This document shows, piece after piece, positions 51,661 to 60,444 of a DNA stretch of 64,000 nt (within the stretch, counting starts at the first letter, position 1; each line of letters begins with the position of its first letter). The DNA is from Desulfurispora thermophila DSM 16022 (lineage in GTDB: Bacteria; Bacillota; Desulfotomaculia; Desulfotomaculales; Desulfurisporaceae). Position numbers and translations under genes: made by a program. The stretch is taken from positions 1 to 64,000 of the forward strand of contig NZ_AQWN01000011.1 in the NCBI RefSeq assembly GCF_000376385.1, given 5' to 3'. The notes under the pieces were generated by a model that was not told where the DNA came from, did not search any database, and saw only the letters and a program-made list of their open reading frames with translations.

Positions 51661-51684
51661 TAAAAAACTTGGGAGGTTTTGGTT

Positions 51685-52080
51685 TTGGTAGCTATTTTAC
51701 AAAAAGCCCGTGAACTGGGCGAAGAGATTTCCCGCTCCACCGAACTGCAGGAAATGCTGGCAGCGCAACAGGCGATGCTCAGCAGCCCGGAAGCATCTGC
51801 TTTGATCGAGGAATTCAACAGAAAACAGAAGTATTACATGACCATCCAAAGACAGGGTCTGGAACTGACTGACAGCCAGAAACAGGACATCGCCGACCTG
51901 GAAGAAAGAATGCTGGACAACGAGTTGGTGCTGAGCTTTTTCCGGGCCCAGCAAAATTTTGAAAAAATTCTAGAGGAAATCAACAACATTATCAGTCAGG
52001 CCATTTCGGGCCAGACCACCTGCGGCGAAGGCGGCTGTTCGGACGAATGTTGCTCCAGCTGCAGCGGGTGTGGCGTGTAA
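51685..52080 (+). CDS. YlbF/YmcA family protein (RicA-like) with cysteine-rich tail
   Basis: The first 110 residues are a helical YlbF/YmcA domain (AQQAMLSSPEASALIEEF, QNFEKILEEINNIIS). The last 20 residues hold seven cysteines (CGEGGC, CCSSCSGC). In Bacillus YmcA (RicA), YlbF and YaaT form the iron-sulfur Y-complex, which affects RNase Y processing and sporulation, and ymcA follows miaB there as here. The TTG at 51685 is preferred because GGGAGG lies 8 nt before it. The tail may be the iron-sulfur ligand site. A terminator follows. Confidence 0.85.
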   Translation: MVAILQKARELGEEISRSTELQEMLAAQQAMLSSPEASALIEEFNRKQKYYMTIQRQGLELTDSQKQDIADLEERMLDNELVLSFFRAQQNFEKILEEINNIISQAISGQTTCGEGGCSDECCSSCSGCGV

Positions 52081-52183: not shown

Positions 52184-54757
52184 TTGGCCTACACCCCCAT
52201 GATGGAACAGTATCTGCAAATTAAGTCCCAGTACCCGGATGCCATATTGTTTTTCCGCCTGGGGGATTTTTACGAAATGTTTTTTGACGATGCTCTGCTG
52301 GCATCGCGCGAGCTCTCCATCACTCTCACCGGCCGTGATGCCGGAGCAGCTGAGCGAGTACCCATGTGTGGCGTACCCTATCACGCCGCTGACACCTACA
52401 TTGAAAAACTAATCAACAAAGGATATAAGGTAGCCATTTGCGAACAGGTGGAAGACCCGGCCCAGGCCAAAGGCATTGTGCGGCGGGAGGTAATCCGGGT
52501 TTTCACACCCGGCACATATTTAACCCGGCAAAAGGAGCAGCAGCACAATTATCTGGCGGCAATCTTTTTTTCCTCCACCGAATACGGTCTGGCCATCGCC
52601 GATGTCACGACCGGCCTTTTGCAGGCTACGCAAATTGACGGTACGGAAAAGGACGGGCATTTGCTGGCCGAACTGACCAGAATTATGCCAGCCGAGATTC
52701 TGGTTCCCGCCAGCCAGGTAACCTGCCAGCTGGTGGACGAGATAAAAAAGCGCCTGGCGCCTGCCCTTTCCCCGCTCCCGGAAGAACAATTCCGCGCCGA
52801 CAAAGCCGGACGTCACCTGGAACAAGTGCTGGGCATCCGCTGGCGAGACAGTGGCATAGGCTCTTATCCCGGCGCTCTGTCCGCCACGGGAGCCCTGCTG
52901 GCCTACCTGCTGGAGACGCAAAAGAATTCTCTCGGCCAGTTCCGCAATTTACAGGTTTACACCGCGGGCCAATACATGATTCTGGACGCCAACACCCGGC
53001 GTAACCTGGAGCTGGTTTTCTCTTTGCGGCACAGAGAACGCTGGGGAACACTGCTCTGGGTGCTCGATAAAACCAGAACCGCCATGGGTGGTAGAATGCT
53101 GCGCACCTGGCTGGAACAGCCCCTGCTGGACATGGACCGGATCAACCAGCGGCTGGATGCTGTGAGCGAACTGGTGGAAGACACCTTCTTGCGACAAACA
53201 CTACAAAAACAGCTTAAAGGCATCTACGACCTGGAAAGATTGGCCACCAAAACGCTTTACAGCACAGTCAACGCCCGTGATATGCTGGCCCTGCGCCAGT
53301 CTCTGCTCATGTTGCCGGAAATTGTCTCCATTTGCCAGAATTGCCGGGCAAGTTTACTGCGGGACATACCGCCTGTTGTCAATGCTTTGCAGGAACTGGG
53401 CATATTTCTGTTGGCGGCGCTGGCCGACGACCCGCCAGCCACGCTCAAAGAAGGAAACTTGATCAAAAGTGGCTTTTCCGCCCAGGTGGACCGCTTGCGC
53501 CAGGCGGCCCGCGATGGCCGCAACTGGCTGGTTGATCTGGAAAACCGGGAAAAAGAGCGCACCGGGATCAAGTCCTTAAAGATCAGCTACAATAAGGTTT
53601 TCGGCTACTACATCGAGGTTACTAAGGCAAATCTTTCCGCTGTTCCGGCCGATTATCAGCGCAAGCAGACCCTGGCCAATGCGGAAAGGTTTATCACTCC
53701 CGCCCTCAAGGAACTGGAGCAACAGATTCTGGGAGCGGAAGAAAACCTGATTCAGCTTGAATATAATATTTTTAACCAGATTCGGGAAAAGGTGGCCGGG
53801 CACATTGAAATGATTCAGCAGGCCGCCCGTTGGCTGGCCACTGTGGACGCTCTGGTTTCCCTGGCCGAGGTGGCCTTTACTTCTGGCTACACCCGACCCA
53901 GTCTTACCCCGGAAACGGTTTTATACATTGAAAACGGCCGCCACCCGGTGGTGGAAAAAGTGCTGGACGACGGGTCGTTCGTCCCCAACGACCTGACCCT
54001 GGACAAGCAAACACGGTTAATTCTGCTCACCGGACCCAACATGGCCGGCAAGAGCACTTTTATGCGCCAGGTGGCATTGATTGTGCTGATGGCCCAGGCC
54101 GGTAGCTTTGTACCGGCCGACCGGGCGGTAGTGGGGCTGGTGGACAGAATTTTCACCCGCATTGGGGCAGCAGATGACCTGGCGGCAGGAGAAAGCACAT
54201 TTATGGTCGAAATGAAAGAGTGCGAAATAATCGTAAAAAATGCCAGCCCGCGCAGCCTGATTATTATGGATGAGGTAGGACGGGGCACCAGTACACATGA
54301 CGGCATCAGCATTGCTAGGGCCCTGCTGGAGCACATTGCTGTCAATATCCAGGCCCGCACCCTGTTTTCCACTCATTACCACGAACTGACCGTGTTGGAC
54401 AGCTTGCCCGGGGTAGCCAATTTTACCATGGCCGTACTGGAGGAAGGCCAGCAAGTTTGCTTCTTGCGCAAAGTCATCCCCGGTAAAGCCGACAAGAGTT
54501 ATGGCATTCACGTGGCCGCCCTGGCCGGGTTGCCGGCAGACATCATCAGGCGGGCCAAAGAAATTCTGGCGGACATGGAAAAACAGGCTCTCCCTTCTGT
54601 AACCCAGTGTACTGCTGCAACGCTACAACAGCAAGACAAACAGCAGTTGTGTCCAAACTGTGAATCTGTACGCAGAGTGTTGCAAAATGTTGATATTAAC
54701 CATATTACACCGGTACAGGCGTTAAATATACTGGCGCAGTTGTGCGCCAACAAGTGA
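52184..54757 (+). CDS. mutS: DNA mismatch repair protein MutS
   Basis: The 857-residue MutS1 protein recognises mismatches and uses ATP to recruit MutL. The N-terminal FFRLGDFYEMF carries the Phe-X-Glu mismatch-reading motif (DFYE), and the C-terminal ATPase has Walker A TGPNMAGKST (about 617-626), DEVGRGTSTHDG and STHYHEL. The TTG start at 52184 has AGGAGGG upstream. A short Cys/Gln-containing stretch precedes the C-terminal end. It shares a gene run with mutL, interrupted by two unrelated genes. Confidence 0.97.
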   Translation: MAYTPMMEQYLQIKSQYPDAILFFRLGDFYEMFFDDALLASRELSITLTGRDAGAAERVPMCGVPYHAADTYIEKLINKGYKVAICEQVEDPAQAKGIVRREVIRVFTPGTYLTRQKEQQHNYLAAIFFSSTEYGLAIADVTTGLLQATQIDGTEKDGHLLAELTRIMPAEILVPASQVTCQLVDEIKKRLAPALSPLPEEQFRADKAGRHLEQVLGIRWRDSGIGSYPGALSATGALLAYLLETQKNSLGQFRNLQVYTAGQYMILDANTRRNLELVFSLRHRERWGTLLWVLDKTRTAMGGRMLRTWLEQPLLDMDRINQRLDAVSELVEDTFLRQTLQKQLKGIYDLERLATKTLYSTVNARDMLALRQSLLMLPEIVSICQNCRASLLRDIPPVVNALQELGIFLLAALADDPPATLKEGNLIKSGFSAQVDRLRQAARDGRNWLVDLENREKERTGIKSLKISYNKVFGYYIEVTKANLSAVPADYQRKQTLANAERFITPALKELEQQILGAEENLIQLEYNIFNQIREKVAGHIEMIQQAARWLATVDALVSLAEVAFTSGYTRPSLTPETVLYIENGRHPVVEKVLDDGSFVPNDLTLDKQTRLILLTGPNMAGKSTFMRQVALIVLMAQAGSFVPADRAVVGLVDRIFTRIGAADDLAAGESTFMVEMKECEIIVKNASPRSLIIMDEVGRGTSTHDGISIARALLEHIAVNIQARTLFSTHYHELTVLDSLPGVANFTMAVLEEGQQVCFLRKVIPGKADKSYGIHVAALAGLPADIIRRAKEILADMEKQALPSVTQCTAATLQQQDKQQLCPNCESVRRVLQNVDINHITPVQALNILAQLCANK

Positions 54758-54785: not shown

Positions 54786-56462
54786 GTGTTCATTGGCATA
54801 GATGTGGGAGGGACATTTACCGATGCAGTGCTGCTCGACCGCGGCATGGTGAAAGCAACGGCAAAAGTGGTCACCCGGCAGGATCTGCTGTCCTCCCTGC
54901 TGGAAGCACTGGACAGCATATTACAGGGCGTCTCGCCCGACCTGATAGAGCGAGTGGTCTTCAGCACGACAGTGATCACTAACTTAATTGCCGAAAAAAA
55001 ATATGACCCGGTTGGACTGATCATCATCCCCGGGCCCGGCCTCAGCCACGCCCACTATCGCTTTGCTACCCAGACCCATATCATTAACGGCGCCATTGAC
55101 TACCGGGGCAGAGAAATAATCCCCCTGGACTTAAAACAGGTGGAGCAAGCGGTGGAAGAACTGGAAGCCGCCGGATACAATAAAGTGGCCGTGGTTGGTA
55201 AATTTTCTTCCCGCAATAACAAACACGAAAAAGAGATTGAAAAATACATCAAACTCCTGCACCCCCAGTGGCAAGTGGAACTAGGACATACCGTTGCCGG
55301 TCAGTTAAATTTTCCCCGGCGGGTTGTCTCCACCATGTTGACCTGTGCGACCCGGGAAAAATATGAATTCTTCGTGCGCTCTGTCTTTCAGGCCTTGGAG
55401 CAGCGCGGACTGCAAGCGGAGATTTATATCCTGCGCGCCGACGGCGGCACGATGCGATTAAAGAATTCCACCAAGGCGCCCATAGAAACCATCTTCAGTG
55501 GACCGGCGGCCAGCACGCTGGGCGTACAGGCACTCCTGCCGCCTGGCGAAACAGCCGTAGTGGTTGATATAGGCGGCACAACTTCCGACCTGGCCCTGCT
55601 CCTGAGCGGCCAGCCTTTGCTGGCTACCAGGGGGGTGTGCATATATAACCAGTTAACCCATGTCCGCGCTCTGGCTGTAAAATCCGTACCCGTAGGCGGA
55701 GATACCACATTAAGCCGGCAGCAGAATCGTATCGTCCTCCTGCCCGGACGGCAGGGGCCACCCTTCTGCCTGGATGGACCTGCTCCCACGCCGACAGATG
55801 CCCTGCGCGTCCTGGGATTATTCCACAAGGGGGACTACGACAAAGCCCGTCAAGCCATGCACATGCTGGGGGCCGAGCTTAATCTGAGCTGCACCGAAAC
55901 AGCTGTCCGAGTGGTTGACCTGGTGGTGGACACCATTGTGCAGGAAATCAACGAAATGTTCAAGAGCTGGGAGCAAGAACCAAGCTACCGGGTCTGGGAA
56001 GTGTTGCAGAAAAAGAAGGTCCGTCCGACCACTGTAGTGGGAGTGGGCGGTGGCGCAGCGGGCTTGATTACACAAATCGCGGCCCGGATGAACTGTCAGC
56101 CTGTTTTGCCTCCTTATGCCAGTGTAGCCAATGCCATTGGCGCGGCTGTAGCCCGCCCCACCCTGCGGGTAAGCCTGCGGGCCGATACCCAGCAAGGGGT
56201 TTATACCATACAAGAAGAGGGCTTCCAGGGAAAAATTGAGGATGGCAACTTCAACGAGGAAAAAGCCATTGCCTTGGCCCGCACCTGGCTGCAACGGCGG
56301 GCGGAAAACGCCGGGCTGACCAGCTCGCTGGGCGAGGTCGAGATCATCCGGCGGGAAGTATTCAACGTCGTCCGCAACTGGGTTACTTGTGGCAAAATAT
56401 TTGATATCGGTGTCCAAACACAGCGCGGTATTTTACATTACATCGGGGGAGGTGGTCGTTAA
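54786..56462 (+). CDS. hydantoinase/oxoprolinase family protein
   Basis: A 558-residue protein with the HyuA-type ASKHA fold: phosphate-binding GIDVGGTFTDA at the N-terminus (residues 4-14), a second DIGGTTSDLAL at about 264, and VGVGGGAAGLI near the C-terminus. Family members hydrolyse cyclic amides with ATP, but this one has no HyuB partner, so its reaction is unknown. I prefer the GTG at 54786 (GGGGGGTG, 5 nt upstream) to the TTG at 54768. Its stop overlaps the next start (TAATG), so translation is coupled with the deacetylase-like gene. Confidence 0.88.
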   Translation: MFIGIDVGGTFTDAVLLDRGMVKATAKVVTRQDLLSSLLEALDSILQGVSPDLIERVVFSTTVITNLIAEKKYDPVGLIIIPGPGLSHAHYRFATQTHIINGAIDYRGREIIPLDLKQVEQAVEELEAAGYNKVAVVGKFSSRNNKHEKEIEKYIKLLHPQWQVELGHTVAGQLNFPRRVVSTMLTCATREKYEFFVRSVFQALEQRGLQAEIYILRADGGTMRLKNSTKAPIETIFSGPAASTLGVQALLPPGETAVVVDIGGTTSDLALLLSGQPLLATRGVCIYNQLTHVRALAVKSVPVGGDTTLSRQQNRIVLLPGRQGPPFCLDGPAPTPTDALRVLGLFHKGDYDKARQAMHMLGAELNLSCTETAVRVVDLVVDTIVQEINEMFKSWEQEPSYRVWEVLQKKKVRPTTVVGVGGGAAGLITQIAARMNCQPVLPPYASVANAIGAAVARPTLRVSLRADTQQGVYTIQEEGFQGKIEDGNFNEEKAIALARTWLQRRAENAGLTSSLGEVEIIRREVFNVVRNWVTCGKIFDIGVQTQRGILHYIGGGGR

Positions 56463-57832
56463 TGTCCGGAAAAACCGGCCTGGTTTTCTTTCCCGCTTTC
56501 GACTGGGCCATCTCCCCCACGCATCCGGAGAGGGAAGAGCGCCTGCTGTACACCAGGGACACCATCTTTGAAGAAGGTGTCCTGGATCTGCCCAATATTG
56601 AAGAGCTGGCACCCCGCCTGGCCACGTTTCACGATATCGCCCGGGTGCATTTCTGTGTGCCCCGGGTCCAGAGCCAGGTTACCGAGGCCCATCTGATTGC
56701 CGCCGGCGCGGCCATGTTGCTGGGCGACTTAATTATTGAAGGTAGTTTGCGCAATGGCTTTGCTCTGGTCCGTCCGCCGGGACACCACGCCATGCGGGTG
56801 GTGCACGGCAACCGGGGATTTTGCAATATCAACAACGAGGCCGTACTGGTGGAATACCTGCGCCGCCGGCACGGTGTGAAAAGAATTGCCATCGTGGATT
56901 CCGATGTTCACCACGGCGACGGCACCCAGGAAATCTTTTACCACGACCCCGATGTCTTGTTTATCTCATTCCATCAGGACGGGCGTACAATCTATCCGGG
57001 TACAGGTTTCACCCACGAACTGGGCGGTCCCCTGGCCTACGCCCGGACGCTGAATGTGCCCCTCCCCCCAGGCACTACAGACGAAACCTTTCTCTACGTG
57101 GTTGATAATCTGATTTTACCTGTATTGCAAGATTTCGCCCCCGAGTTCATCATCAATTCCGCCGGCCAGGACAACCACTACACCGACCCTCTGGGCAGCA
57201 TGCGTTTCACTGCCCAGGGGTATGCCGAGTTTACCCGGCGGTTAAATCCCCACCTGGCCGTCCTGGAAGGCGGTTATGCCATCGAATCGGCCCTGCCCTA
57301 CGTAAACCTGGCTATTTTGCTGGCGCTGTCGGGTCATGATTACTCTTATGTGCGCGAGCCGGATTACTGGCCGGGCAAGTTCAAAGAAAGCCCGGAGCGG
57401 CTTGACCAGGTGAAAAGAATGGTAGATAATTTACTGGGAATCTGGCAGAACAGAGATAAGGCGGATATAGAAAAATTGTTTGGGACAGGCAAGTTCTACC
57501 AGCGCAAGAAAAATATTTATTATGATACAGATTATATTGAAGAAGAACAGTTTGAAAAAGTGCGCATGTGCCCTTACTGTCCGGGGTACATCATCATCGA
57601 GTCCCGCGCCAACCGCGGTTATGGCTCGCCCAACCGCGTTTTCGCAATTTCCGTACCTTTTCAGGCCTGTTCCTGCTGTCAGGCGGAAGCCGCTGATGCT
57701 TACGAGAAGGCCAAGAAAGAAGGCAGGTTCGACTATGTTTATCTGCAGGATAAAACCACCGATACCTACATGTCCTATGAGCGCAACAAGAATCAGGAAT
57801 GGTGCTCGGAGGGGCCCCGCCCGGAGGTGTAA
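56462..57832 (+). CDS. histone deacetylase-family amidohydrolase with Cys-rich C-terminal domain
   Basis: A 456-residue arginase-fold zinc hydrolase with the deacetylase motifs RPPGHHAM (about 102-109), DSDVHHGDGTQE (metal ligands Asp and His), SAGQDNHYTDPLG (Asp ligand, with Gln in place of the usual Phe) and LEGGYA. Such bacterial enzymes remove acetyl groups from polyamines, proteins or small amides. The C-terminal 130 residues are not part of the usual fold and hold CPYC and CSCC pairs that look like a zinc ribbon. It is coupled to the hydantoinase gene and sits 2 bp before mutL. Confidence 0.9.
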   Translation: MSGKTGLVFFPAFDWAISPTHPEREERLLYTRDTIFEEGVLDLPNIEELAPRLATFHDIARVHFCVPRVQSQVTEAHLIAAGAAMLLGDLIIEGSLRNGFALVRPPGHHAMRVVHGNRGFCNINNEAVLVEYLRRRHGVKRIAIVDSDVHHGDGTQEIFYHDPDVLFISFHQDGRTIYPGTGFTHELGGPLAYARTLNVPLPPGTTDETFLYVVDNLILPVLQDFAPEFIINSAGQDNHYTDPLGSMRFTAQGYAEFTRRLNPHLAVLEGGYAIESALPYVNLAILLALSGHDYSYVREPDYWPGKFKESPERLDQVKRMVDNLLGIWQNRDKADIEKLFGTGKFYQRKKNIYYDTDYIEEEQFEKVRMCPYCPGYIIIESRANRGYGSPNRVFAISVPFQACSCCQAEAADAYEKAKKEGRFDYVYLQDKTTDTYMSYERNKNQEWCSEGPRPEV

Positions 57833-57834
57833 AA

Positions 57835-59634
57835 TTGGCTAGGATCAATATCTTACCTCCCGCCATTGCCAATCTGATTGCTGCCGGGGAGGTGGTGGAG
57901 CGTCCCGCTTCTGTCGTCAAAGAACTGCTGGAAAACTCTTTTGACGCTGACGCCCGCCGGGTGGAAATAGAAATCAAAGAGGGGGGCCTGAAATACATTG
58001 CCGTACGGGACAACGGCCTGGGCATGGACGCCGAAGACCTGAAACTGGCTGTGTTGCGCCATGCCACCAGTAAAATTGCCAGCCTGCCCGATCTGGACAA
58101 TATTACCACCATGGGTTTTCGCGGAGAAGCTTTACCCAGCATCGCCGCCGTCAGCAAACTGCTGATCAATTCCCGCTCACGGCAGGATGTGCAGGGACAC
58201 CAGATTGAAGTCCATGGTGGTGAAACGATAAGTTTTTCTCCTGTCGGCTGCCCGGCAGGAACTTTTGTTTGTGTGCAAGATCTGTTTTTCAACACACCGG
58301 CTCGCCGCAAATACCTGAAATCCGCCGCAGCCGAAGCGGCCGCCATCAGCGATTTCGTAACCAGGCTGGCGCTGGCCCGGCCTGATGTAAGCATAACTTA
58401 CAAAAACAATCAACGCCAGTGCCTGTATACCCCGGGTAACAATAAACTTTCCGATGTCATCAATGCTGTATACGGCGTGGAAGTAGGCAGACAAATGTTG
58501 CCGGTTTCCTATACCCGGGAAGATATGCAGCTCAGCGGTTACATCTCCCCGCCAGCTTTGCAGCGCAGCACGCCCAGGTACCTGACGACCATCGTCAACC
58601 AGCGCTATGTCAAATGCCGGACCATGGTGCAGGCCGTGTTGGACGTGTATCAAAGCATTTTGTCTCCCGGGCGCTATCCTATCGCTGTGCTATCCTTGCG
58701 CATCGACCCCCGGCGGGTGGATGTAAATGTGCACCCGGCCAAAATGGAAATCAAACTGCAGGACGAACAGGCAATTTACCTGTTTATCCGTCAGGCCATC
58801 CAAAAAGCGCTGGCCAGCACTGATCCCGTGCCATCCATTACCATACCAGGAGCTTGCCCGGTCGCCCGGACCAACCTGACCGTGTTGTCGGTACCGCCGA
58901 CCGGAACAACACACGCCGCAGCAACATACAGCAGCATGAACCTTACTGGCAGCTCTTCAAACGGTGATCGGGAGCAAATATGGGAATCCTTACACCATGA
59001 GCGCTATTTACCGGAAAAAAAGAAGGAAGAAGAGCCCGAGAAAACATCCCTGCCTGAGCTAACCCCGGTGGGCTACTTGCCACCGGTCTACATCCTGGCC
59101 ACCGATTATGTTAATTTTTATATAATTGACCACCACGCGGCCCATGAACGAATCCTGTATGAAAAGCTGATGGCAGCTTATAACAATAGTCCCGATCTGC
59201 GCCAGAACCTGCTCATACCCCGCCCGCTGCACTTCACTTTTCAGGAAGCGCAACTCCTGCAAGAGCAACGGGATATACTGGAAAGACTGGGCATTTTCCT
59301 GGAATACCTGGGGGGGAACAGTTTCATGCTGCGCAGTTGGCCGGTAGTTTTACCGGATGACGAGCATCTTATCTACGACATAACTGCCGCTCTGCAAAAA
59401 CTGGCCGCCGAGAAAAGCATTACGCCAGCCAATCTATTAAAGCATATTGCCCAGATGGCCGCCTGCAAAGCTGCCGCCAAGGCAGGAAAAGTGCTGGCTG
59501 AAGCCGAAGCCCGGGAATTGCTGGCCGAGCTCGGGCAGACCGAAAATCCCTATCAATGCCCGCACGGCCGTCCGACAATTCTCAAAAAATCTCTACAAGA
59601 CATTGCCGCCCATTTTAAAAGAAGCCATAATTGA
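57835..59634 (+). CDS. mutL: DNA mismatch repair protein MutL
   Basis: The 599-residue protein has a GHKL ATPase domain (AAGEVVERPASVVKELLENS, in parts, residues 20-40; DNGLGMD; TMGFRGEALPSIAAVS) and a C-terminal dimerisation domain with DHHAAHERILYE, a close variant of the nickase motif DQHA-X2-E-X4-E, so it is likely an endonuclease MutL. CPHGRP near the C-terminus supports this. The TTG start at 57835 follows GGAGGTG. It works with MutS encoded 3 kb upstream. Confidence 0.96.
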   Translation: MARINILPPAIANLIAAGEVVERPASVVKELLENSFDADARRVEIEIKEGGLKYIAVRDNGLGMDAEDLKLAVLRHATSKIASLPDLDNITTMGFRGEALPSIAAVSKLLINSRSRQDVQGHQIEVHGGETISFSPVGCPAGTFVCVQDLFFNTPARRKYLKSAAAEAAAISDFVTRLALARPDVSITYKNNQRQCLYTPGNNKLSDVINAVYGVEVGRQMLPVSYTREDMQLSGYISPPALQRSTPRYLTTIVNQRYVKCRTMVQAVLDVYQSILSPGRYPIAVLSLRIDPRRVDVNVHPAKMEIKLQDEQAIYLFIRQAIQKALASTDPVPSITIPGACPVARTNLTVLSVPPTGTTHAAATYSSMNLTGSSSNGDREQIWESLHHERYLPEKKKEEEPEKTSLPELTPVGYLPPVYILATDYVNFYIIDHHAAHERILYEKLMAAYNNSPDLRQNLLIPRPLHFTFQEAQLLQEQRDILERLGIFLEYLGGNSFMLRSWPVVLPDDEHLIYDITAALQKLAAEKSITPANLLKHIAQMAACKAAAKAGKVLAEAEARELLAELGQTENPYQCPHGRPTILKKSLQDIAAHFKRSHN

Positions 59635-59658: not shown

Positions 59659-60444
59659 ATGTCTGCAGCCGTTACTACCACCATCCGTCCGGATTCCGCC
59701 GTCCTGGACAAAGCCGTACAGGTAGCCCAGGAACTCTCTCTACCTTTTATAGCCAGACAAAAAAACAGCATCGAGCAACTTATCCGGCAAAACAACTTAA
59801 AGGGTGCCCTGGTCATAGGTAAAAACAAAAGTATATATACCGACGGGCAGGTGGAGCTCTTTTTTCACCCGGGCATGGCAAAACTGCGTATAAAAGAAAT
59901 ACTGGCTGGGAAAACTGACCAAATGATCAAAGCAATGGATCTTCAGCCAGGAGATACGGTCCTGGACTGCACTCTGGGTCTGGCTGCCGATGCCATTGTG
60001 GCCTCCTTTGCGGTGGGTGAAAACGGCAGCGTGACCGGTCTGGAAAACAGCACTTTGCTGGCCTGGCTGGTCAAAGAGGGCCTGACATCTTACCAGGACA
60101 GGGAAATGCCAGCCATGAACCGGGCCATGCGCCGCATAAAGGTCCTGCCTGCCGATCACCTGACTTACCTGTCCGCATTACCGTCTGAAAGCGTTGATGT
60201 TGTATACTTTGATCCTATGTTCCGCTATCCACTCTGGCGTTCTTCTGCCATGCTCCCGGTACGCCCGTTGGCCGACCAGCGCCCCGTTTCCGAAGCGGCT
60301 CTCCGGGAAGCGTTGCGAGTAGCCCGCAAAAGGGTAGTGGTCAAAGAAACCAGGGATAGCAAGGAGTTTTCGCGCCTGTGTATTAACGAAGTGTCCGGCG
60401 GCAAACACTCCCCCATCGCCTTCGGCATTATCAAAAAGAAGTGA
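59659..60444 (+). CDS. SAM-dependent methyltransferase, RsmJ/YhiQ-like
   Basis: A 261-residue class I methyltransferase with VLDCTLGLAADAIV (SAM loop, about 104-117) and VYFDPMFRYP (about 190-199), the DPMFP-type catalytic motif of the RsmJ family, which methylates guanosine in small-subunit rRNA. Whether this clostridial relative acts on rRNA is not shown by sequence. It lies 24 bp after mutL and 12 bp before miaA, so all three are likely co-transcribed. Confidence 0.8.
   Translation: MSAAVTTTIRPDSAVLDKAVQVAQELSLPFIARQKNSIEQLIRQNNLKGALVIGKNKSIYTDGQVELFFHPGMAKLRIKEILAGKTDQMIKAMDLQPGDTVLDCTLGLAADAIVASFAVGENGSVTGLENSTLLAWLVKEGLTSYQDREMPAMNRAMRRIKVLPADHLTYLSALPSESVDVVYFDPMFRYPLWRSSAMLPVRPLADQRPVSEAALREALRVARKRVVVKETRDSKEFSRLCINEVSGGKHSPIAFGIIKKK

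What the first reader, a model, noticed from the sequence alone, without database searches (positions are those of the whole stretch)
54786..57832. Hydantoinase-deacetylase pair inserted between mutS and mutL
Two amide-hydrolysing families unrelated to repair are wedged between mutS and mutL, coupled by a TAATG overlap, with only 2 bp before mutL. The deacetylase has a 130-residue Cys-rich tail and Gln in place of the usual Phe next to the catalytic Asp. A shared substrate such as an acetylated or cyclic amide is possible; no function is known to me.
Basis: partly seen in the sequence, partly recalled or inferred. Interest (0 to 1): 0.55.

Follow-up and report, generated by a model that had tools for sequence, protein, structure and literature searches.

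The report
Conserved ATPase-deacetylase gene pair
Two neighbouring genes, one for an ATP-using enzyme of the hydantoinase type and one for a zinc deacetylase with an extra metal-binding-looking tail, travel together through many bacteria of one phylum, and what they do together is unknown.

Summary
HyuA (54786-56462) and a classical zinc deacetylase (56462-57832) overlap by one base and sit between mutS and mutL. The mutS/mutL location is not the point. In a sample of 299 genomes of the phylum, 119 carry this deacetylase family and 120 this HyuA; 117 carry both, side by side in 116. In 33 of 60 fetched loci the pair lies away from mutS/mutL. In two genomes it stays in the operon although MutS and MutL are gone; in 12 of 13 order genomes without it there, mutS and mutL adjoin. 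It is an independent two-gene unit. The deacetylase is a discrete clade with a full catalytic set, acetyl-type motifs, and a C-terminal domain with four Cys invariant in 61 of 61. The Gln beside the zinc Asp is real but shared with tail-less paralogues. HyuA keeps its ATP-site Asp residues but has no HyuB in the own genome or in 17 of 40 pair-bearing relatives. Best reading, inferred: a two-component ATP-dependent amidohydrolase with the deacetylase in HyuB's place. Substrate and ATP coupling are untested.

The parts
54786..56462 (+). HyuA-type ASKHA ATPase subunit (558 aa), without a HyuB partner
   Evidence: Pfam PF05378 + PF01968; ATP-site motifs DVGGT, DIGGTTxD conserved in 57 rows; model best matches acetophenone carboxylase, N-methylhydantoinase, acetone carboxylase, caprolactamase subunits
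56462..57451 (+). zinc deacetylase catalytic domain (residues 1-330), with RPPGHH, RGFC, D-x-D-x-HH, AGQDNH, EGGY
   Evidence: PF00850; model Z about 31 to bacterial HdaH/KDAC and HDAC6 over residues 2-333; motif counts
57452..57832 (+). C-terminal four-Cys domain (residues 331-456), CxxC, 24-33 residues, CxxC, probably metal-binding
   Evidence: 4 Cys in 61 of 61 members; no Pfam match over cut-off and no convincing PDB sequence match
52184..54757 (+). mutS, upstream neighbour, not part of the unit
   Evidence: PF00488 and other MutS domains; MutS/MutL not beside the pair in 33 of 60 loci
57835..59634 (+). mutL, downstream neighbour, not part of the unit
   Evidence: PF01119, PF08676; start TTG 57835 read from the sequence

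Best explanation
HyuA and the deacetylase are two components of one enzyme system unrelated to mismatch repair. Shown: they are co-inherited, adjacent and usually overlapping, both keep their catalytic residues, and the HyuA has no general HyuB partner. Inferred: they work as in ATP-dependent lactam hydrolases. HyuA binds ATP and activates (probably phosphorylates) an amide carbonyl, and the zinc site then hydrolyses the amide; the deacetylase takes the place of the metal subunit HyuB. The acetyl-type pocket motifs suggest that a small acyl group such as acetyl is removed. The four-Cys tail is inferred to bind zinc and to dock HyuA or the substrate. The substrate is unknown. The vegetative-type promoter signal and strong conservation suggest a basal metabolic or damage-removal role.
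For: Co-occurrence in 117 of 299 phylum genomes (119 deacetylase, 120 HyuA), adjacent with HyuA 5' in 116, and in 77 of 113 class genomes (79 each). Across 23 loci with all six genes, HyuA and deacetylase distances stay correlated after removing MutS, MutL, MiaA and MiaB (partial r 0.62, permutation p 0.0005); deacetylase-MutS is 0.07. HyuB absent from the own genome and from 17 of 40 pair-bearing relatives. Catalytic motifs intact. The deacetylase is more conserved than MutS and MutL in 26 of 26 loci. Precedent: CapA activates and metal-bearing CapB hydrolyses caprolactam, with loss of activity on mutating CapA D11 and D295 (PMC8453981, passages); the corresponding HyuA Asp residues are D6 and D261 (correspondence by motif). 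RPPGHH and EGGY mark acetyl-preferring deacylases (PMC11532494, passages).
Against: No physical contact or ATP coupling is shown. Known deacetylases of this fold need no ATP (recalled). Partial correlations are noisy: HyuA-MutL is 0.48 and deacetylase-MutL -0.35, so the distance test alone is weak. In two class genomes (G016, G027) the two genes are not adjacent. The adenosine motif GxxPGP of CapA is not kept in that form (GRQGPP in the window). The HyuA model is of low confidence (pLDDT 64.9, pTM 0.49).
Confidence: 0.42

Rival explanations
1. Two separate enzymes act one after the other in one short pathway: HyuA phosphorylates or opens a small molecule, and the deacetylase removes an acetyl group from it, without forming a complex.
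For: Same co-occurrence and adjacency data; both genes form an isolated unit in about half of the fetched loci, with no third shared neighbour family among 86 neighbour proteins scanned.
Against: The absence of any other pathway gene nearby fits a self-contained enzyme at least as well; the HyuA relatives of known function named here work with a partner subunit (PMC8453981, passages).
Confidence: 0.3
2. The deacetylase is a protein lysine deacetylase, and HyuA is an ATPase that controls or reactivates it, or delivers substrates.
For: Closest folds are lysine deacetylases HdaH/KDAC and HDAC6, Z about 30-31; Leu at the gatekeeper column as in HDAC6 CD2. Sirtuins are somewhat rarer in pair-bearing genomes (58 of 119 versus 113 of 180). 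Wide lysine acylation is reported in the anaerobe Syntrophomonas wolfei (PMC9676460, passages).
Against: The own genome has two SIR2 matches; the SIR2 imbalance equals that of the unrelated PxpA, so it is probably lineage background. The HyuA relatives of known function activate substrates rather than regulate.
Confidence: 0.18
3. A 5-oxoproline or other lactam salvage system that stands in for PxpABC.
For: HyuA matches N-methylhydantoinase and the caprolactamase chain (6yra) among solved structures; PxpA is somewhat rarer with the pair (26 of 119 versus 62 of 180, p 0.02).
Against: 26 genomes carry both; no HyuB in the own genome; the imbalance is no larger than for SIR2.
Confidence: 0.06
4. 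Part of mismatch repair, or a mere hitch-hiker in the mutSL operon.
For: Sits between mutS and mutL here, in 16 of 19 loci from genome contigs (the three others are cut by a contig end or in pieces), and beside mutS or mutL in 27 of 60 fetched loci.
Against: 33 of 60 loci elsewhere; G281 and G329 keep the pair between ylbF and miaA with no MutS or MutL found; 12 of 13 tested order genomes without the pair at this site have mutS and mutL adjoining.
Confidence: 0.03

Closest known systems
HyuA/HyuB-type ATP-dependent amidohydrolases and carboxylases (caprolactamase CapAB, 5-oxoprolinase, N-methylhydantoinase, acetone and acetophenone carboxylase)
   Same: HyuA with Hydant_A_N and Hydantoinase_A domains and the two phosphate-site Asp motifs; best structural matches; gene pair with a metal hydrolase as neighbour
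   Different: No HyuB in the own genome; HyuA is 558 aa against 658-732 for separate-chain relatives in the PDB; the partner is an arginase/deacetylase-fold enzyme
Classical bacterial zinc deacylases (HdaH/KDAC, cluster 1 of Graf et al. 2024, PMC11532494)
   Same: PF00850, HH dyad, D-H-D zinc set, RPPGHH, GFC, (E)GGY; model Z about 31
   Different: Four-Cys C-terminal domain, FPAFDW/HPEREERLLYT N-terminus, AGQDNH, HQDGRT; constant HyuA partner; long separating branch from 14 tail-less paralogues
Acetylpolyamine amidohydrolases (cluster 4) and HDAC10
   Same: Fold and catalytic residues
   Different: No Glu gatekeeper (PEG) or PIS motif: DPL 57 and DPI 4 of 61, followed by A, T or G

Membership tests
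Classical Zn deacylase (PF00850) | Profile match over cut-off | tested here: met
   237 bits, cut-off 27.9
Classical Zn deacylase (PF00850) | HH dyad, D-H-D zinc ligands, catalytic Tyr | tested here: met
   RPPGHH 61/61; DxDxHH 61/61; D237 at least 97%; EGGY 57 + QGGY 4 of 61
Classical Zn deacylase (PF00850) | Deacylase activity | not testable with these tools
   Needs purified protein
HyuA (Hydantoinase_A) | Hydant_A_N and Hydantoinase_A over cut-off | tested here: met
   111 and 140.8 bits against 25.2 and 22.9
HyuA (Hydantoinase_A) | Phosphate-1 and phosphate-2 Asp motifs | tested here: met
   D6, D261, D268 at least 97% identical in 57 rows
HyuA (Hydantoinase_A) | Adenosine motif GxxPGP | tested here: inconclusive
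   Window has GRQGPP; only one Gly of it is on the 97% list
HyuAB two-subunit hydrolase | HyuB partner (PF02538) | tested here: not met
   None in the own genome (99.59% complete) nor in 17 of 40 pair-bearing relatives
Acetylpolyamine amidohydrolase | PEG or PIS gatekeeper motif | tested here: not met
   DPL(A/T/G) 57, DPIT 4 of 61; column placed by the HDAC6 alignment
Mismatch-repair operon component | Constant association with mutS/mutL | tested here: not met
   27 of 60 fetched loci only; separable both ways
Zinc-ribbon-like domain (tail) | Match to a described zinc-binding domain | tested here: inconclusive
   Four invariant Cys, but no Pfam match over cut-off in 5 tails; the structure comparison covered only residues 2-333

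The most novel reading that the evidence does not exclude
The first ATP-driven member of the histone-deacetylase superfamily: a two-component amidohydrolase in which an HDAC-fold zinc enzyme has replaced HyuB as the partner of a HyuA ATPase, widespread and highly conserved in one bacterial phylum, acting on an amide too stable for an ordinary deacetylase.
Probability: 0.28. Interest if true: 0.78.

Novelty: new variant of a known kind. Interest (0 to 1): 0.52.

Why it matters
If the coupling is real, it would add an ATP-dependent branch to the HDAC superfamily and a second kind of hydrolytic partner for HyuA. Even without it, a nearly always single-copy two-gene unit found in about 40% of sampled genomes of the phylum (117 of 299), with a deacetylase better conserved than MutS, is a sizeable uncharacterised piece of basic biology of sulfate reducers and related bacteria. 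The tight pairing makes its function directly testable.

Tried and rejected
Mismatch-repair role: rejected on separable distribution. Gln next to the zinc Asp as a special feature: rejected, shared by 11 of 14 tail-less paralogues. Neighbour-based function: 86 neighbour proteins from loci away from mutSL were scanned, of 112 listed; I left out 26 (short frames, a long antisense frame, near-duplicates in L094 and L139, a HyuA piece, and the ylbF/miaA neighbours of L133 and L134). No family recurred in a way that marks the pair: the commonest, ABC_tran, was in 4 of 61 and Pyr_redox_2 in 2 of 25; only the first 25 families of each list were shown. Sporulation: Spo0A_C is in 116 of 119 pair-bearing against 141 of 180 other genomes (counted by hand; Fisher p 7e-7 uncorrected for relatedness), but upstream regions show no sporulation-sigma enrichment (sigE 1, sigG 1, sigF 1, sigK 0 of 28) and a mild excess of vegetative-type sites (11 of 28 against 47 of 261 control regions); treated as lineage background. 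PxpA and SIR2 complementarity: weak and equal. Fusion of the two genes: the long open frame in G179 does not look like a fusion (HyuA and deacetylase hits lie in different frames by their coordinates). Mobile carriage: no plasmid record covers 80% of the deacetylase; viral contigs gave one distant partial match. Literature: three searches found no paper on the pair in their listings (hydantoinase, histone deacetylase, mutS, mutL; hydantoinase, histone deacetylase, Desulfotomaculum; hydantoinase, deacetylase, gene cluster, operon, Clostridia); only open-licence PMC papers are held. In the main text of PMC11532494 the words hydantoinase, Desulfotomaculum, Firmicutes and zinc finger do not occur. 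Occurrence outside the phylum was not tested, apart from plasmid and viral records.

Full report
Observation. The window holds miaB, a ylbF-like gene, mutS, HyuA, a deacetylase, mutL, a SAM methyltransferase gene, miaA and hfq in one direction (miaB, miaA and hfq named by me from their sequences, used as probes).

A discrete family. Nearly all matches cover the protein almost end to end at 50-80% identity; some are fragments at contig ends. The next matches reach about 45% identity or less over long stretches and are mostly confined to the catalytic domain. I fetched 15 of these lower matches: 14 gave a readable frame, all without a CxxC pair after the GGY motif and without FPAFDW. A tree of 31 family members (of the 61 collected) and the 14 paralogues puts the family on one side of a long, fully supported branch. 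No NCBIfam model matches the deacetylase at E <= 0.1, and HyuA is far below every model's cut-off.

A fixed pair. In the phylum sample HyuA of this type is in 120 genomes at E <= 1e-40. Both genes are in 117; two have only the deacetylase (G331, G354) and three only a HyuA match (G146, G213, G356). In 116 of the 117, HyuA lies directly 5' on the same strand within 1 kb; in the other (G335) the HyuA match is in pieces and the piece listed lies 1043 bp away. In the class, 79 genomes have each gene and 77 have both. Of the 190 distinct genomes with a deacetylase match in the two samples I fetched wide flanks for 60, chosen by me to cover many families: HyuA is directly upstream in 58; the two exceptions are relatives in one genus (G016, G027), where the deacetylase lies alone and, in G016, HyuA is about 3 kb away on the other strand.

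Not a repair gene. MutS or MutL lies beside the pair in 27 of the 60 loci and not in 33. G281 and G329, both 99% complete, keep the pair between ylbF and miaA, but no MutS (E <= 1e-60) or MutL (E <= 1e-20) is found in them. Of 13 order genomes tested that lack the pair at mutSL, 12 have mutS and mutL directly adjoining, with 35 to 276 bp between the matched stretches; G013 had neither. In the 26 loci holding MutS, MutL and the pair, the deacetylase is more similar to the window's than MutS or MutL in 26 of 26; HyuA exceeds MutS in 14 of 26.

Deacetylase anatomy. Across 61 sequences (window plus 60) 97 positions are at least 97% identical. RPPGHH and RGFC are in 61 of 61, EGGY in 57 and QGGY in 4; the gatekeeper column is DPL in 57 and DPI in 4. 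Graf et al. 2024 (PMC11532494: outline, section 6 and passages read) tie RPPxHH and EGGY to acetyl preference, and PEG or PIS to polyamine activity; the column is placed by the HDAC6 alignment. The model (17 sequences, pLDDT 73.6, pTM 0.81) matches bacterial HdaH/KDAC and HDAC6 at Z about 30-31, rmsd about 3, about 300-315 residues aligned, over residues 2-333. The tail, residues 331-456, has Cys 370, 373, 403 and 406 in 61 of 61, with 24 to 33 residues between the two CxxC. It matches no Pfam family over its cut-off (five tails); the only PDB sequence match is at E 1.1. Zinc binding is inferred from the Cys pattern.

HyuA anatomy. Conserved motifs are DVGGT, STTxTN, KFSxRN, SGPxAS, DIGGTTxD, GGD and NAxGA (57 rows). 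Solved relatives by sequence are N-methylhydantoinase, acetophenone and acetone carboxylase and the 6yra chain. The model is weak (pLDDT 64.9, pTM 0.49), yet its best five matches are subunits of these same enzymes, Z 10.4-14.3 with large rmsd (9-13); the next rows are other ASKHA-fold proteins at nearly the same Z. HyuB is absent from the own genome and from 17 of 40 pair-bearing genomes among 60 relatives, so HyuB cannot be the general partner; 23 of the 40 do have a HyuB somewhere.

Mechanism. In caprolactamase, CapA activates the lactam with ATP and the metal subunit CapB hydrolyses it (PMC8453981, passages). By analogy I propose that here the zinc deacetylase takes the hydrolytic role. 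The steps shown are the pairing, the intact catalytic residues and the missing HyuB. The complex, the ATP coupling, the metal in the tail and the substrate are inferred. A distance test supports pairing (partial r 0.62, permutation p 0.0005, 23 loci), but it is noisy: HyuA-MutL is 0.48 and deacetylase-MutL -0.35.

Correlates. PxpA is in 26 of 119 pair-bearing and 62 of 180 other genomes; SIR2 in 58 of 119 and 113 of 180; Spo0A_C in 116 of 119 and 141 of 180 (counted by hand; test). 'Pair-bearing' here means the 119 genomes with a deacetylase match. None is corrected for relatedness; the first two are equal and weak. Upstream of HyuA in 28 loci away from mutSL there is a mild excess of vegetative-type promoter-like sites and no sporulation-type excess.

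Verdict. A real, widespread, uncharacterised two-gene unit; a new variant of known enzyme kinds. No paper on the pair was found in three searches, which cover only open-licence PMC papers.

Noticed in passing
51679-52080: YlbF/YmcA-like protein with a strongly Cys-rich C-terminus (CGEGGCSDECCSSCSGCGV); weak match to the halo-CC-star HcsL model, 68 bits against a cut-off of 140.
   Followed up: no
59659-60444: SAM methyltransferase of PF04445 between mutL and miaA, recurring in 22 of 60 fetched loci; far below the RsmJ equivalog cut-off.
   Followed up: no
L133, L134 (genomes G281, G329): Two 99% complete genomes of one genus with no MutS or MutL found, though the rest of the operon and the pair remain.
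   Followed up: partly
L181-L195: Tail-less class II-type deacetylase paralogues in genomes of the order, most with the same AGQD Gln; no link to HyuA was tested.
   Followed up: partly
L138, L139: In one genus the deacetylase stands apart from HyuA, beside a ThiF-type gene and a Cu-oxidase_4 gene and genes that read to me, by recall, as MoaD-like and aldehyde ferredoxin oxidoreductase.
   Followed up: no
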